Position numbers and translations under genes: made by a program
Notes under the pieces: model-generated
What the model saw: only the letters and a program-made list of their open reading frames with translations
Told to the model about the DNA's origin: nothing
Databases searched by the model: none
Part shown: positions 31,856 to 38,698 of the stretch, piece by piece
Layout: each line of letters begins with the position of its first letter
Position numbering within the stretch: the stretch's first letter is position 1
From: Desulfurococcales archaeon
GTDB taxonomy: Archaea > Thermoproteota > Thermoprotei_A > Sulfolobales > Acidilobaceae
Assembly (NCBI GenBank): GCA_015521115.1
Contig: WAOT01000029.1
Location: forward strand, 1-41,999
DNA: 41,999 nucleotides
Direction: 5' to 3'

Positions 31856-33109
31856 ATGAGTGAAGACCTAGGAGACCTCATAGAAGCTCTGAGGAGGTTC
31901 GGGCTCGCGAGCGAGGTGGAGAAGGGGTCTATTATTGTTAAGAGGAGGGAAGTGATTATAGCGTCGGGTAGAAAGGGGGCAATACGCCTCAAGCTCAAAG
32001 GCAACACTATAATGCTGGAGGACGGGGGGCTGCTGAGGAGTAGGAAGTATGAAGTACCACGCGATGCTAGGGGGCTAGAGACTCTGGCACCTCTCATCTA
32101 CTATAGCTGGGTCGAGGCGAACAGGGGGCTGCAGTCGAAGCTCTCAGGCTACCTTGTGAGGGCCGCTAGGCGGGCTAGGGCGAAACGGGGGTGTGTGTCC
32201 CTCTTCGAGAGGCTTGGCCTAGAGTATCACGAGGGGGACTGCACGAGGCTGGCCTCTCTCCTCGCGTATGGCATCTACAAGTATAGGGTTCTGGCCGGTA
32301 TTTCGATTGATAGCGTTAACTTGGACGGCGTCTACTTCCCCCCTAAGGCCGATGAGGAGGTCTATAGCCTATTATCCTCGTACCTAAGCCTCCTAAGGAC
32401 GTTCGCGGATGAGCTGGAGAACGTTGATGAGGTGGTCTCAGCGGGTAACAGCCTCTTCGAGAGATACGGTTACATGCCAGACGCTCTAAAGATAGACTTA
32501 GACCTCTCCTCCTACCTTGACAGGCTCACATACGGCTGGCGAGTCTACCTTGTAGCTCTCTCGGCTTTAAGCAAGGGGGTGCGCCTGTCGAGGCCCCCCC
32601 ATAGTGTGGCGTTGACCGAGGCAGCACTCATGGGCGAGACCCTCTGGGCTAGGACGGGTAACGGTACGGTCGCAGTGGAGCCTAATACTCCAGTGAGCTC
32701 GGGGCTCGCCCTCGTCCACTATAACCAGACGGGCTCAAAGCTGTCAATAATCCCCAGGGGCTCAGGGAATAGGGGGCTGAAGTGTGTAACGAGGGGTTCT
32801 CCCTCCTGCCGTGACACGAGCATAGTAGTAGACCCGGGTTACGACGCCCTCGAGAGCGCACTAACAGCGGCTAAGACGGGGGAGGCAGGCGTAGAGATCG
32901 TGTACTACTCTGAGAGGCCTCTAGTGATAGTCATCAGCAGGTGTTTGGAGAGGCTTTCGATCGGGAGCATAGGAATGGGGGGTAGGATATCGATGGTGGA
33001 CTCCCTCTTCCCCGAAAAACTTGTTAGCTGGAAGAAAGGCGTCCCGAGGCCGGATGCCAGGCCGGGGGATCTAGGGCTTTATAGTAAGGCCTTGGGGGTC
33101 ATTGGCTAG
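31856..33109 (+). CDS. Hypothetical protein (417 aa), crenarchaeal type
   Basis: I do not recognise this family. The protein is soluble-looking. It starts with a short helix-plus-beta-meander domain (LGDLIEALRRFG, then EKGSIIVKRREVIIASGRKG; about 1-85), followed by a helical region with two Cys (CVSLFERLGLEYHEGDC), a central helical stretch (about 165-240) and a beta-rich C-terminus (IEIVYYSERPLVIVISR). No signal peptide, membrane segment or clear catalytic motif is visible. It is divergent from dphB and overlaps the acyl-CoA dehydrogenase gene by 11 nt at the 3-prime end. Codon use matches the neighbours. Confidence 0.68.
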   Translation: MSEDLGDLIEALRRFGLASEVEKGSIIVKRREVIIASGRKGAIRLKLKGNTIMLEDGGLLRSRKYEVPRDARGLETLAPLIYYSWVEANRGLQSKLSGYLVRAARRARAKRGCVSLFERLGLEYHEGDCTRLASLLAYGIYKYRVLAGISIDSVNLDGVYFPPKADEEVYSLLSSYLSLLRTFADELENVDEVVSAGNSLFERYGYMPDALKIDLDLSSYLDRLTYGWRVYLVALSALSKGVRLSRPPHSVALTEAALMGETLWARTGNGTVAVEPNTPVSSGLALVHYNQTGSKLSIIPRGSGNRGLKCVTRGSPSCRDTSIVVDPGYDALESALTAAKTGEAGVEIVYYSERPLVIVISRCLERLSIGSIGMGGRISMVDSLFPEKLVSWKKGVPRPDARPGDLGLYSKALGVIG

Positions 33110-34374: not shown

Positions 34375-35400
34375 TCAACCAATGTCGAATATTTCATTTA
34401 TGTATATTTTTGGTTTATTATCATAACATTTAATTCTTATCTCCAGTAGACTATATAGATCCGGCCGGAGGTCGTAGTGGTCAGCTATCTGCCTGACCGT
34501 ATCCGGGATATTCAAGCCTCTTTCTACCTTAAGAGAGACAATTATAGGATAAATCCTGTTTTTAGCTAATTTAAACGCTTTTCTTAATGAATATACATAA
34601 TAAGAAACTTGGTCTACAGAGCTCCGCAGTTCCCTGTCTCTTTGAAGTGCCCTCTTAACCTCAATGACGGCGAACCAAGTCGGTTTAGAGCTGTACACTG
34701 CTATGTCAAGGTATCTTCGGCTATAAACGTAGACGCCCGTGGCTATCAGGGAAGTGTTCGGAGCAGGTATTAGGCTGGAAGCGAAATCCGTGTCCCTAGC
34801 GATGGAGGCCTCAATAAGATACTCAGGAATAGATCTGAATAGCTTCTTCGTGTTTTCAAGACTTTCTAGACTGTTGCAGACATATTTGTCCAGTGCAATG
34901 TCCCCTTCCCGTGTTGGAGTCCATCGACTAGTAGTGTTAACATTGTACAGTTTTAGGAGATTGTCTAATGATATGAAAGTCGCCGAATCCATGAACCCTT
35001 CGAAAAAGTTCTGCGCTTCCTCATAAATCACAGTATGGATCCAATAGGTTATTAGCGTCATTGGGTCTCTTAGGCTAAGCCTCCCTCTCTCAACGATAAG
35101 GTCTGTTAGCCTCCTTCCTTCAACAACACCTATCTTTATGCTTGACGGTTTCAAGCCTATTACGAAGTTCCACTTAGTATTGGGCCAGAGGGTGTCACTA
35201 GTATGGAAAGGCCCCGTCCGTACAATGAATGGGCCCATTAGGCGTCTATTTTCCATGTCGAATAGGAGGGCAAAATCCCCTTTACGTGCTGAGAGCAGGC
35301 CCCTCTGTTCGGGCCTACTTATATCGGCTCCATACGCCATATTTTCGAGAACTATCTTGAGATTTTCCTTTTTGGTCGACAAAATAAAAAGCTTGTTCAA
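34375..35400 (-). CDS. Putative PD-(D/E)XK nuclease with PUA-like (DCD/EVE-type) N-terminal domain
   Basis: This 341-residue protein is AT-rich compared with its neighbours. The N-terminal 100 residues resemble DCD/EVE-type PUA-fold modules (FILSTKKENLKIVLENMAYG, RKGDFALLFDMENRRLMGPF, then WPNTKWNFVIGLKP). A helical linker follows (about 110-200). The C-terminal region has a nuclease signature: E197, D232 in RRYLDIAVY, E247-x-K249 in WFAVIEVKRAL and Q264-x3-Y268 in SVDQVSYYVYSL, in the order seen in NucS/RecB-like PD-(D/E)XK enzymes. TTG start with GGTGGAG 6 nt upstream. It lies 40 nt behind truD. A modification-dependent restriction or repair nuclease is inference; it could instead act on RNA. 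Confidence 0.68.
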   Translation of the reverse strand: MNKLFILSTKKENLKIVLENMAYGADISRPEQRGLLSARKGDFALLFDMENRRLMGPFIVRTGPFHTSDTLWPNTKWNFVIGLKPSSIKIGVVEGRRLTDLIVERGRLSLRDPMTLITYWIHTVIYEEAQNFFEGFMDSATFISLDNLLKLYNVNTTSRWTPTREGDIALDKYVCNSLESLENTKKLFRSIPEYLIEASIARDTDFASSLIPAPNTSLIATGVYVYSRRYLDIAVYSSKPTWFAVIEVKRALQRDRELRSSVDQVSYYVYSLRKAFKLAKNRIYPIIVSLKVERGLNIPDTVRQIADHYDLRPDLYSLLEIRIKCYDNKPKIYINEIFDIG

Positions 35401-35440
35401 AGCTTACTCCACCATTTACTATACCGCCTGGGAGAGACCC

Positions 35441-36544
35441 CTAATTTCTCTTTCTTCGGGTTAACATCCGGGCTGCTAGGAGCCGGGTGCACTCGCTGAC
35501 CCAGTCTAGAGCGTATTTCTCTCTCAGCATTACTGTGGCGTATGAGCCCCGTGGTAGTGTGAAGGTGTGGACATGTGCCCCCTGGGGCTCTACGACCTTA
35601 ATTGTGTGCGTGCATGGCTCCGCAGTAGCTAAGCGGGGTGAAGGCTTGAGCCCCCTTAAGGTCTCCCACTCGAGCTCCTCCCGCTCGAGGTGGTACTCGA
35701 CAGTCTCCCTCCACCACTTCGGCTCCCCCATCCTCCGGGATGGGAGCGGGAGTAGGGGGTGTTTCCTCGTCTCAGAATGCTTCGGGCATACTGGTCTTGC
35801 CCTCTCCTTCACCCGCTCTAGGAGGTTCTCCCTTATTGCAGTAGAGAGGGCCTTATTCCAGATGTAGGCTTGGAGCGCCTGTAGGGCCAGTCTCTCCACC
35901 ATACTATTTAGGGCGTCTCTTCTTTTCCGCGGAGGTTCTAGGGGGTATCTCGAGGCTAGCTCTTCTCGGAGGCCTTCGTCGTCGTGCTTCGCAAGATATA
36001 AGCCTATTATGTGCGTATTAGGCCTGCAGACCCCAAACCTCTGGGGGCCGTAGTAGTTTGGGAACGTCCACCCCGGCCGTGGGGGATCCGTGGGGGACTG
36101 GGGTAGGAGTGTTATGTTGAAGGAGTTCCAGCCGTGTAGTCCTTTGACCGGCTGGCCTACTCCATCTGCTATTAGCCACGCCTCGACAGTCCAGCCTCTC
36201 CCCGACAGGATGATGTGCCTGGGCTTCTGCTCCGGCCTTAGGAGGGCTATTGACTGGTACGCGATCGCCTGGCTGTCCTTTAACCCGTAATATGAGTACT
36301 TCTTCGCCCCCAGCCCCCATGCCAGTATTCTTGCCGCCTTCTCGGTGGGGATGTCCTTCTTTCTAATGTAGTAGAGAGTCCATCCACCGCTCCAAGTGAG
36401 GGGGCGTGGCTCCGCCACTAAGAACCCGTTGGGTCTAGGGATGACGGCCTTGGGCCTCCCACCGGGTTCTAGCCATTCGAGGGTGCCCCACAGTTCTTCG
36501 AGGATATCGTTCACCCTCCACCTAAGACTCCAGGGGCGCTCCAT
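35441..36544 (-). CDS. truD: TruD-family tRNA pseudouridine synthase
   Basis: This enzyme makes pseudouridine in tRNA (position 13 in the family). It has 367 residues. The catalytic Asp is D90 in YYGLKDSQAIAYQ; the second TruD block is FPNYYGPQRFG, and the N-terminal FLVAEPRP corresponds to the FxVxE region. The protein is somewhat short for archaeal TruD, with a compact insertion domain in the middle (about 190-320). ATG at 36544 lies 18 nt after pth2, so the two RNA-related genes form an operon, with the nuclease gene behind. Confidence 0.88.
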   Translation of the reverse strand: MERPWSLRWRVNDILEELWGTLEWLEPGGRPKAVIPRPNGFLVAEPRPLTWSGGWTLYYIRKKDIPTEKAARILAWGLGAKKYSYYGLKDSQAIAYQSIALLRPEQKPRHIILSGRGWTVEAWLIADGVGQPVKGLHGWNSFNITLLPQSPTDPPRPGWTFPNYYGPQRFGVCRPNTHIIGLYLAKHDDEGLREELASRYPLEPPRKRRDALNSMVERLALQALQAYIWNKALSTAIRENLLERVKERARPVCPKHSETRKHPLLPLPSRRMGEPKWWRETVEYHLEREELEWETLRGLKPSPRLATAEPCTHTIKVVEPQGAHVHTFTLPRGSYATVMLREKYALDWVSECTRLLAARMLTRRKRN

Positions 36545-36562: not shown

Positions 36563-36937
36563 CTAGTAGAGTTTGAGGTGGCCTGTTATCCTGTCTACCC
36601 TATCCGATGGGGCTGGGCCTACCGCCACGGCAGTCCTCGTCCCGGGTGGTAGCTGGGTGTGTCCCGCATCTGCGACGATACTAGCCGGTAGCCCCTCTTC
36701 CAGTGCTCTCCTCAGGATCTCGAGGAGTTCCTTCTCACTATCCACGCGCAGGACAACCTTCTTCTGCCCCTGTATCCTCCACTCGTCAAGCCAGGCCTTC
36801 CACCTCGGGTGCCCCCCGTATATGATCTTGAAGACTGCCTCGCAACTCGCGTGTGCTGCCTGTGCTGCCGCCTTGCCCCTCCCCATTTTGAGGTCTCTAC
36901 GTATCACTATTGCCTGCTTGACTTCCCCGCCCACCAC
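36563..36937 (-). CDS. pth2: Peptidyl-tRNA hydrolase, archaeal Pth2 type
   Basis: This enzyme releases peptides from stalled peptidyl-tRNA. Pth2 landmarks are KQAIVIRRDLKMGRGKAAAQ, AHASCEAV, KVVLRVDSEKELLE, SIVADAGHTQLPPGTRTAVA and GPAPSDRVDRITGHLKLY. I chose the GTG at 36937 (124 residues), because GGAGGGG lies about 8 nt upstream and Pth2 proteins begin just before VKQAIV. An upstream GTG at 36988 gives 141 residues, with an extension that does not look like the family. It is first in a pth2-truD operon. Confidence 0.92.
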   Translation of the reverse strand: MVGGEVKQAIVIRRDLKMGRGKAAAQAAHASCEAVFKIIYGGHPRWKAWLDEWRIQGQKKVVLRVDSEKELLEILRRALEEGLPASIVADAGHTQLPPGTRTAVAVGPAPSDRVDRITGHLKLY

Positions 36938-37035
36938 TACTCCCGCCCCTCCAGGGTAACTTACACGGTAATGGTTGATGTGGGCCACGCTTTTTTCCCT
37001 GCCTTTGCGTCCTCCTATAGTTGAAGGACTCGCAT

Positions 37036-37875
37036 ATGGGGGTGGACGTGGTGTTCCCCATTGTCAGGCCTGAGGGCGTGAGCGCTCACGTGGGAATTAT
37101 CGGGGGCTCCGGCCTATATGACCCAGGTATTGTTGAGGAGCCAGTTGAGGTTAGGGTCTACACGCCCTACGGGGAGCCGAGCGACTTCATCGTTGTCGGG
37201 AAGGTTAAGGGTGTACCGGTAGCCTTCCTCCCCCGTCACGGGAGGGGCCATAGGATACCCCCGCACATGATAAACTACCGGGCTAACATTTGGGCTCTTA
37301 AGACGCTGGGGGTGAAGTGGGTTGTCAGCGTCTCAGCAGTAGGCTCGCTCCGCTGGGATTATAGGCCTGGGGACTTCGTGGTGCCGGATCAGTTCATAGA
37401 CATGACTAAGGGGAGGAAGTACACGTTCTTCGACGGCCCGATAACCGCGCATGTAAGCATGGCAGATCCCTTCTGTGACGACCTCCGCGAGAAGATCATT
37501 GACACTGTGAAAGGCCTCGGATACCCGGTTCACGGGAAGGGTACATACGTCTGCATAGAGGGGCCCAGGTTCAGCACTAGGGCGGAGAGCAGAGTGTGGA
37601 AGGAGGTTTTCAAGGCCGACATCATAGGGATGACACTAGTGCCTGAAGTGAACCTCGCGTGCGAGGCCCAGCTCTGCTATGCGACCCTAGCAATGGTAAC
37701 AGACTACGACGTCTGGGCCGAGCACCCAGTCACTGCAGAGGAGGTGGAGAAGATAATGAAGCAGAACACTGAGAGGGCCAGGAAGGTATTATACGAGCTC
37801 ATACCAAAACTAGCGGGTGAACCGGATGAGAAGAAGTGCAGCTGCTGCAAGAGCCTCAGCTACGCTATCGTATAG
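37036..37875 (+). CDS. mtnP: S-methyl-5'-thioadenosine phosphorylase with CxC tail
   Basis: This enzyme cleaves methylthioadenosine, a by-product of polyamine synthesis, to adenine and methylthioribose-1-phosphate. Family blocks are [63 protein letters not shown] and [19 protein letters not shown]. The C-terminus carries a Cys cluster (CSCC), like the CxC disulfide motif that stabilises hyperthermophile MTA phosphorylases. I chose ATG 37036, with AAGGA 7 nt upstream; TTG 37021 is the alternative. The end overlaps the next gene by about 50 nt in another frame. It fits with the SpeH-family decarboxylase gene 1.4 kb downstream. Confidence 0.93.
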
Positions 37876-38698
37876 CGAGGCCGAGAGGAGATACCACCAG
37901 GCAGTAAACACTGCCCGAGGCCTCCCGAGGGCCCGCCTCTCGGACGATACAGTAATTGTTTCAACATACGACGCCGTTCCCCCAGCTAGAATTCTCTATA
38001 CCAACTGCCTCCACGCGGGGCTGAGGTGCAGCCTCCTCGAGCCGAGCTATGCAAGTGTGAGCTTAATCCCCTACAGGGAGACCGGGAACATAGTCATATT
38101 CACAAGAAACCCTAGGAGCCTAAGGGTCGTCAACCTAGCTGAGGCCTCAAGCCTCTTAGGGCTGGAGGTAACAGTAGTCACACCACCACCCCACCCGGCC
38201 GTCCGGGAGAGGTTGGAGAGTGTTGGGGCGGAGATCATCGAGGTGGGGGAGCCTAGTCTCCTGGTCATGAGCATAGCGTCAACACTATGGACACCCAAAC
38301 TGATGGGAGCCAGGGAGGAGAGGGTGAGGGCTGAACTAGAGGATCTCCCAACAGCCCTACGGTGGGTTGAGGAGAGGGTAAGGGTGAAGCTCCCCTCTCT
38401 ACGAGAGGTAAACCCACGGCCTCCACTCTACACGCCAATAGCAGCGCCGGGGGCGTACTACCACTGTCTAGCCCTGCGCTGCGGTGCCCCTCTCCCAGTC
38501 GAGGCCGTGCTCTCCGTAGATCTCGAGCCCAGCGTCATATACCTGAATAGCGTGGAGTTACATGACTACCGAGACCTCCTGACAATCCCGAGGAAGGGTA
38601 TTGATAGGGGCCTTATAGTCGAGATAAACGCGGATCCAGTAACTTCGGGCTTATACTCTGTGCTGGCCGCAGTCCTAATCACTGGGAGGATAATATAG
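37826..38698 (+). CDS. SIS-domain-like protein overlapping mtnP
   Basis: This protein of about 290 residues has an alternating alpha/beta pattern. The stretch [20 protein letters not shown], then [14 protein letters not shown] and AEIIEVGEP, resembles a sugar-isomerase (SIS) phosphosugar-binding fold, but no decisive motif is present. C-terminal strands include [21 protein letters not shown]. The frame offers only ATG 37826 (GGGTGA about 5 nt upstream) or GTG 37817. No usable start occurs for a long way downstream, so the gene must overlap the last 50-59 nt of mtnP, where the bases encoding the mtnP Cys tail also encode [10 protein letters not shown]. The function is unknown. Confidence 0.62.

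What the first reader, a model, noticed from the sequence alone, without database searches (positions are those of the whole stretch)
34375..35400. AT-rich gene pairing a PUA-like reader-type domain with a PD-(D/E)XK nuclease: candidate new modification-dependent nuclease
The sequence shows a D232 ... E247-x-K249 ... Q264-x3-Y268 series with an upstream E197, the layout of NucS/RecB-like PD-(D/E)XK nucleases, joined to an N-terminal region resembling DCD/EVE PUA-fold modules. PUA-fold domains such as EVE are known to be fused to nucleases in systems that recognise modified bases. Composition differs sharply from neighbours: only 10 of 60 bases in 34381-34440 are G/C by my count, while flanking genes are clearly GC-rich. 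The gene trails the housekeeping pth2-truD operon, a place where an acquired gene could settle. I do not know a described system with this exact architecture in Crenarchaeota.
Basis: partly seen in the sequence, partly recalled or inferred. Interest (0 to 1): 0.72.

Follow-up and report, generated by a model that had tools for sequence, protein, structure and literature searches.

The report
Acquired gene: DNA-mark reader plus nuclease
One rare, apparently acquired archaeal gene joins a domain of the kind that reads chemical marks on DNA to a DNA-cutting domain, most likely to cut marked viral DNA; this general design has already been described, so it is a new, divergent member rather than a new kind of system.

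Summary
A 341-aa TTG-start gene (35400-34375, minus strand) carries E197, D232, E247-x-K249 and Q264-x3-Y268 at the stated positions. It is markedly AT-rich (43% GC; 28 other window ORFs 55%, about 5.4 SD away).

The N-terminal ~135 residues are an EVE-type PUA domain. hhalign gives probability 96 against archaeal EVE proteins; 200 column shuffles reached at most 3.2. Intermediate sequences match solved EVE proteins PH1033 and MJECL36.

The C-terminal half is a RecB/NucS-like PD-(D/E)XK domain. This rests on sub-threshold Pfam hits to two different PD-(D/E)XK families and on profile scores above all shuffles. AlphaFold gave no usable model.

Only one relative turned up: a disrupted copy in another genus of the same family (Acidilobaceae), at an unrelated locus, with all motif residues conserved. 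Related genomes keep pth2-truD without the gene. It looks like a rare, acquired accessory gene.

The likeliest function is NTP-independent, modification-dependent DNA cleavage (type IV-like), by analogy with VcaM4I. Bell et al. 2020 already described EVE-PD(D/E)XK and DCD-PD(D/E)XK fusions as putative type IV enzymes. It is a divergent new member of a known kind; substrate and activity are untested.

The parts
34375..35400 (-). Whole gene, 341 aa, TTG start, single-chain EVE-like/PD-(D/E)XK protein
   Evidence: GC and GC3 outlier
34996..35400 (-). Residues 1-~135: EVE/DCD-type PUA-like domain (predicted base-reading module)
   Evidence: hhalign vs archaeal EVE set prob 95.9-96.1, E 3-6e-9; vs DCD set prob 86.6; column shuffles at most 3.2 and 9.6; reversed 0.7 and 0.3. 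Intermediates L008 and L023 match PDB 1wmm and 2p5d
34831..34995 (-). Residues ~136-190: variable inter-domain linker; boundaries approximate
   Evidence: Lies between the two assigned domains; gapped between the two copies; boundaries inferred
34378..34830 (-). Residues 191-341: PD-(D/E)XK nuclease-like domain
   Evidence: Pfam HSDR_N_2 E=0.016 at 227-292; relative hits PDDEXK_1 E=0.011; hhalign scores 29.9 vs HSDR_N_2 set and 31.2 vs NucS set, shuffle maxima 18.7 and 19.5
34705..34707 (-). Codon of D232, predicted metal-binding Asp
   Evidence: present and conserved in the relative
34654..34662 (-). Codons 247-249 (E-V-K), predicted E-x-K catalytic motif
   Evidence: E and K conserved in the relative (E-I-K)
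34597..34611 (-). Codons 264-268 (Q-x3-Y), RecB/NucS-type motif
   Evidence: conserved in the relative
34810..34812 (-). Codon of E197, candidate helix-1 Glu of the nuclease core
   Evidence: conserved in the relative
35407..35413 (-). Shine-Dalgarno-like GGTGGAG six bases before the TTG start (by eye)
   Evidence: Sequence; not tested statistically
35441..36544 (-). truD (tRNA pseudouridine synthase D), upstream same-strand neighbour; not part of the system
   Evidence: Pfam TruD E=4e-26; kept in relatives without this gene
36563..36988 (-). pth2 (peptidyl-tRNA hydrolase), upstream neighbour; not part of the system
   Evidence: Pfam PTH2 E=5e-41

Best explanation
This is a horizontally acquired accessory gene for a single-chain, NTP-independent, modification-dependent (type IV-like) endonuclease. 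Shown by sequence comparison: an N-terminal EVE-type PUA domain and a C-terminal RecB/NucS-like PD-(D/E)XK domain with an intact D...ExK...QxxxY series. Inferred from the EVE-HNH enzyme VcaM4I: the N-domain flips a modified base out of the DNA into its pocket, the linker and N-domain hold the nuclease inactive until then, and the nuclease domains, probably dimerised, cut nearby DNA. Also inferred: the target is modified viral or plasmid DNA, and the host's own methylation pattern is not recognised. The domain assignments are about 0.85-0.9 likely; the modification-dependent DNA restriction function about 0.55.
For: N-domain: hhalign probability 96 to archaeal EVE proteins and 87 to DCD proteins, with 200-shuffle and reversed controls far below; structural anchor through L008/L023 to PH1033 (1wmm) and MJECL36 (2p5d). 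C-domain: two homologues independently give sub-threshold hits to different PD-(D/E)XK Pfam families; profile scores to HSDR_N_2 and NucS sets exceed all shuffles; motif conserved in both copies. Accessory-gene behaviour: 2 of 229 genomes of the class, a different locus in each, GC more than 5 SD off, absent beside truD in relatives. Known class: EVE- and DCD-PD(D/E)XK as putative type IV enzymes (PMC7641849). VcaM4I has the same order and similar sizes: EVE 1-147, helix 148-178, nuclease 179-309 (PMC7897488).
Against: No defence-gene neighbours: flanks are truD/pth2 and an acyl-CoA dehydrogenase gene. No PADLOC or NCBIfam match. AlphaFold confidence too low to show either fold. C-domain probabilities are modest (22-30%). 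The near-invariant EVE start 'YW/VW' is K-L/K-V in both copies, so the pocket may differ or bind something else. The only relative has a broken N-domain. The host encodes two adjacent N4/N6-type methyltransferases, so any N4mC/N6mA reader would need sequence selectivity.
Confidence: 0.58

Rival explanations
1. A structure- or damage-specific DNA nuclease that acts like NucS, with the EVE-like domain serving only as a DNA-binding platform rather than a modified-base reader.
For: The best C-domain profile score is to archaeal NucS (31.2, shuffle max 19.5), and the order helix-E...D...ExK...QxxxY matches NucS_C. The EVE-typical N-terminal Trp is missing.
Against: The genome already has an ordinary NucS on another contig. 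Sporadic distribution and foreign composition do not suit a repair gene. The N-domain matches EVE, not the NucS N-domain (winN vs NucS prob 0.2).
Confidence: 0.14
2. A nuclease that recognises and cuts modified RNA, or a toxin-like abortive-infection effector using an EVE/YTH-type RNA reader.
For: PUA-superfamily EVE and YTH domains were first associated with modified RNA (PMC7897488 introduction), and EVE domains occur in toxin-antitoxin contexts (PMC7641849).
Against: PD-(D/E)XK domains of the RecB/NucS/HsdR type act mostly on DNA (established knowledge); no partner antitoxin gene adjoins it.
Confidence: 0.1
3. A recently acquired gene that is no longer functional or is decaying.
For: The only relative has a stop and a frame-breaking deletion inside the N-domain.
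Against: The window copy is one intact 341-codon frame with a plausible ribosome-binding site and all predicted catalytic residues.
Confidence: 0.12
4. The gene is not an EVE/PD-(D/E)XK fusion and the similarities are chance.
For: No single library match passes its curated cut-off, and the AlphaFold models are poor.
Against: Two independent domains each beat all shuffles, and motif residues are conserved between two divergent copies.
Confidence: 0.05

Closest known systems
EVE-PD(D/E)XK and DCD-PD(D/E)XK fusion proteins, putative type IV restriction enzymes (Bell, Wolf and Koonin 2020, PMC7641849)
   Same: Same core architecture, a PUA-type EVE/DCD reader fused in one chain to a PD-(D/E)XK nuclease; DCD mostly in archaea and hyperthermophilic bacteria.
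VcaM4I (EVE-HNH modification-dependent endonuclease, PMC7897488)
   Same: N-terminal EVE reader, linker, C-terminal nuclease, about 310-340 aa, no NTPase.
   Different: HNH instead of PD-(D/E)XK; its pocket residues P24, W82 and Y130 cannot be mapped with confidence onto this protein.
Archaeal NucS (NucS_C, PF01939)
   Same: Similar D...ExK...QxxxY series; best C-domain profile score (31.2).
   Different: No NucS N-domain; the genome carries a separate canonical NucS on contig C35.
Standalone archaeal EVE proteins PH1033 (1wmm) and MJECL36 (2p5d), UPF0310
   Same: PUA/EVE domain linked to the N-domain through L008 and L023.
   Different: No nuclease domain; the window domain was not matched to them directly by sequence.
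EVE plus C-terminal D...ExH/ExQ-like domain proteins in other Thermoproteota (L045-L050, L056)
   Same: Same size and order; C-domain has an 'R-V-D-V-A-F-F ... V-V-E-V-H' series.
   Different: The catalytic Lys position is not Lys, and they do not align as orthologues (EVE part prob 5, C part prob 3.5).

Membership tests
EVE/DCD-type PUA domain proteins | Significant profile similarity to EVE/DCD domains over the barrel | tested here: met
   hhalign prob 96 (EVE set) and 87 (DCD set); shuffles at most 3.2 and 9.6
EVE/DCD-type PUA domain proteins | Direct match to Pfam EVE (PF01878) or Dev_Cell_Death (PF10539) over the cut-off | tested here: not met
   No match (searches list no hit in G000); the domain is a divergent relative
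EVE/DCD-type PUA domain proteins | Conserved N-terminal 'YW/VW' and aromatic base pocket | tested here: inconclusive
   First aromatic replaced (K-L/K-V); W72, W77 and the T-Y-W-I-H block at 118-122 could supply others, but the alignment there is uncertain
EVE/DCD-type PUA domain proteins | PUA-fold barrel in three dimensions | tested here: inconclusive
   AlphaFold pLDDT 32
PD-(D/E)XK nuclease superfamily | D ... (D/E)-x-K catalytic series | tested here: met
   D232, E247, K249, conserved in the relative
PD-(D/E)XK nuclease superfamily | Profile similarity to known members | tested here: inconclusive
   Sub-threshold Pfam hits to two different member families; hhalign above all shuffles but prob only 22-30
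PD-(D/E)XK nuclease superfamily | Core alpha-beta-beta-beta-alpha-beta fold | tested here: inconclusive
   Order of predicted elements agrees, with D, ExK and QxxxY on the expected ones, but pLDDT is 33
NucS | NucS N-terminal domain plus NucS_C over cut-off | tested here: not met
   No Pfam NucS_C match; N-domain vs NucS set prob 0.2
Type IV (modification-dependent) restriction enzymes | Reader domain fused to a nuclease in one chain | tested here: met
Type IV (modification-dependent) restriction enzymes | No dedicated adjacent methyltransferase | tested here: met
   Neighbours are truD, pth2 and acyl-CoA dehydrogenase genes
Type IV (modification-dependent) restriction enzymes | Cleaves modified but not unmodified DNA | not testable with these tools
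   Needs a biochemical assay

The most novel reading that the evidence does not exclude
A separate, thermophile-specific branch of EVE-like readers without the usual N-terminal aromatic, which senses a base modification (perhaps one used by hyperthermophilic archaeal viruses) that no described reader-nuclease recognises.
Probability: 0.12. Interest if true: 0.6.

Novelty: new member of a known kind. Interest (0 to 1): 0.3.

Why it matters
If active, it would be a compact, presumably heat-stable, modification-dependent nuclease with a reader that standard libraries miss. It would show that such enzymes circulate in Acidilobaceae and would hint at modified bases in the DNA of their viruses, about which little is known. 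The kind of enzyme itself is already described.

Tried and rejected
Direct library searches (Pfam, NCBIfam, PHROGs, PADLOC) and a direct search of solved structures gave no over-threshold match. Scans of viral contigs, plasmids and phages found no homologue, and the pattern scan of genome contigs found only the known relative. L003 is the reverse frame of a malic-enzyme-like gene and L010 overlaps unrelated genes, so both were dropped as chance. L045-L050 were considered as close orthologues and rejected: hhalign prob 5 for the EVE part and 3.5 for the C part, and no ExK. Both AlphaFold runs failed (pLDDT 32 and 33), so no fold search was run on them. No convincing direct repeats and no tRNA genes mark an insertion boundary.

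Full report
WHAT IS THERE. The window holds an open reading frame at 35400-34375 on the minus strand: 341 aa, TTG start. It begins two codons after an in-frame TAA, so TTG is the only reasonable start, and a GGTGGAG motif lies six bases upstream. The 28 other ORFs measured average 0.551 (SD 0.022) and 0.656 (SD 0.037), so this gene is the clear outlier, more than 5 SD below. Upstream on the same strand, 40 bases away, is truD and then pth2; downstream on the same strand is an acyl-CoA dehydrogenase gene.

RELATIVES AND MOBILITY. Among 214 genomes of the order, and 229 of the class searched with the two-row profile, only one real relative was found: a contig of G072, same GTDB family. The genome-contig scan returned what appears to be the same 16,020-base contig, titled 'Acidilobaceae archaeon'. 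The relative aligns at 37% identity overall. It lies between a respiratory-complex-type membrane subunit gene (my reading of the sequence) and a pyridoxal-dependent decarboxylase gene, not beside truD. Its N-terminal frame ends in a stop after 'VFLMG', and about 62 bases are missing between the parts that match residues 47 and 76, which breaks the frame. It is therefore probably a degraded copy, though the assembly has low coverage (about 2.9x by its title). Its nuclease half is open and keeps E197, D232, E247, K249, Q264 and Y268. The MoCF / 37817 / phosphorylase / pth2 / truD cluster, or large parts of it, is kept in several relatives without this gene next to truD. No homologue was found in viral contigs, phages or plasmids. 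Together with the base composition, this points to a rare acquired accessory gene.

N-TERMINAL DOMAIN. The two-row profile weakly pulled out an EVE-like protein, L008 (E=0.0018), and a DCD protein, L009 (E=0.0175). I collected archaeal EVE and DCD proteins and compared profiles. The window N-domain against the EVE set gives hhalign probability 95.9, E 6e-9; against the DCD set, 86.6. The accepted EVE-DCD relationship gives 94.8 with the same data. In 200 column shuffles the largest values were 3.2 and 9.6, and reversed profiles gave 0.7 and 0.3. With residues 1-145 the probability is 96.1, and a loosened realignment runs to residue 135. Two of the intermediate proteins match solved structures: L023 to PH1033 (1wmm, E=2e-15) and MJECL36 (2p5d, 1e-11), and L008 to the same two (8e-4, 4e-3). 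The EVE start 'YW' or 'VW' is K-L in the window and K-V in the relative, so the base pocket may differ from the known one.

C-TERMINAL DOMAIN. Pfam gives one sub-threshold hit, HSDR_N_2, E=0.016 at 227-292, precisely the motif region. The relative independently gives PDDEXK_1 at E=0.011. Profile comparison scored 29.9 with a set of HSDR_N_2 proteins (shuffle maximum 18.7) and 31.2 with a set of archaeal NucS proteins (maximum 19.5). The probabilities are only 30 and 22, so this is supporting, not conclusive, evidence. For calibration, the HSDR_N_2 and NucS sets score 77 with each other. A strict motif (hydrophobic-hydrophobic-D ... E-x-K ... Q-x3-Y) occurs in 0 of 20,000 and 1 of 20,000 shuffles of the two proteins. 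The pattern was written after seeing the sequence, so this only shows that composition alone does not produce it. The low-confidence AlphaFold run on this half (pLDDT 33) shows helices, then three strands, a helix and a strand, with D232, E247/K249 and Q264/Y268 on the expected elements. I treat this only as consistent.

WHAT IT MOST LIKELY DOES. The order and sizes (reader ~135, linker ~55, nuclease ~150 residues) match VcaM4I: EVE 1-147, linker helix 148-178, HNH 179-309. VcaM4I flips 5mC or 5hmC into a pocket, is held inactive by the linker helix, and its nuclease domains dimerise (PMC7897488). By analogy, I infer a single-chain, NTP-independent nuclease that cuts foreign DNA carrying modified bases. 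The domains are shown by sequence comparison; base-reading, auto-inhibition, dimerisation and defence are inferred.

WHAT IS KNOWN. [quoted passage not shown] VcaM4I's authors describe PUA-superfamily reader plus nuclease as the common layout of such enzymes. The window protein is therefore a divergent new member of a known kind. Its reader is divergent enough to escape Pfam EVE and DCD, which is the main point of interest.

Noticed in passing
L045 1470-2384 (-), L046 1980-2873 (+), L047 1449-2402 (-), L048 1416-2381 (-), L049 1983-2939 (+), L056 1959-2828 (+): Thermoproteota proteins of 290-322 aa with an N-terminal EVE domain and a C-terminal domain with a 'RVDVAFF...VVEVH'-type series: possibly PD-(D/E)XK domains in which the catalytic Lys is replaced (for example by His or Gln), not named by Pfam.
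   Followed up: partly
L064 2032-2995 (G072 contig C140): The only relative of the window gene is disrupted inside its reader domain (stop and about 62 missing bases), while the nuclease half is open and all motif residues are kept. For VcaM4I, loss of reader plus linker gives a toxic nuclease, so what this copy makes is an open question.
   Followed up: partly
L119 2-1015 (-) and 1185-2135 (+), own genome contig C5: Two adjacent, oppositely oriented N4/N6-type DNA methyltransferase genes near a contig end, with a gene that resembles a CRISPR-associated regulator downstream.
   Followed up: no
L012 550-1848 (-), L013 526-1830 (-): DCD domains fused to methyltransferase-like regions (as described by Bell 2020) in other Thermoproteota.
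   Followed up: no
L008 1309-1893 (-) and 1928-2368 (-): A standalone EVE-like protein directly follows a PIN-domain-like gene, a possible toxin-antitoxin-like pair.
   Followed up: no
window 31856-33109 (+) and 37817-38698 (+): Two sizeable genes without any Pfam match; the second is kept next to the phosphorylase gene in several relatives.
   Followed up: partly
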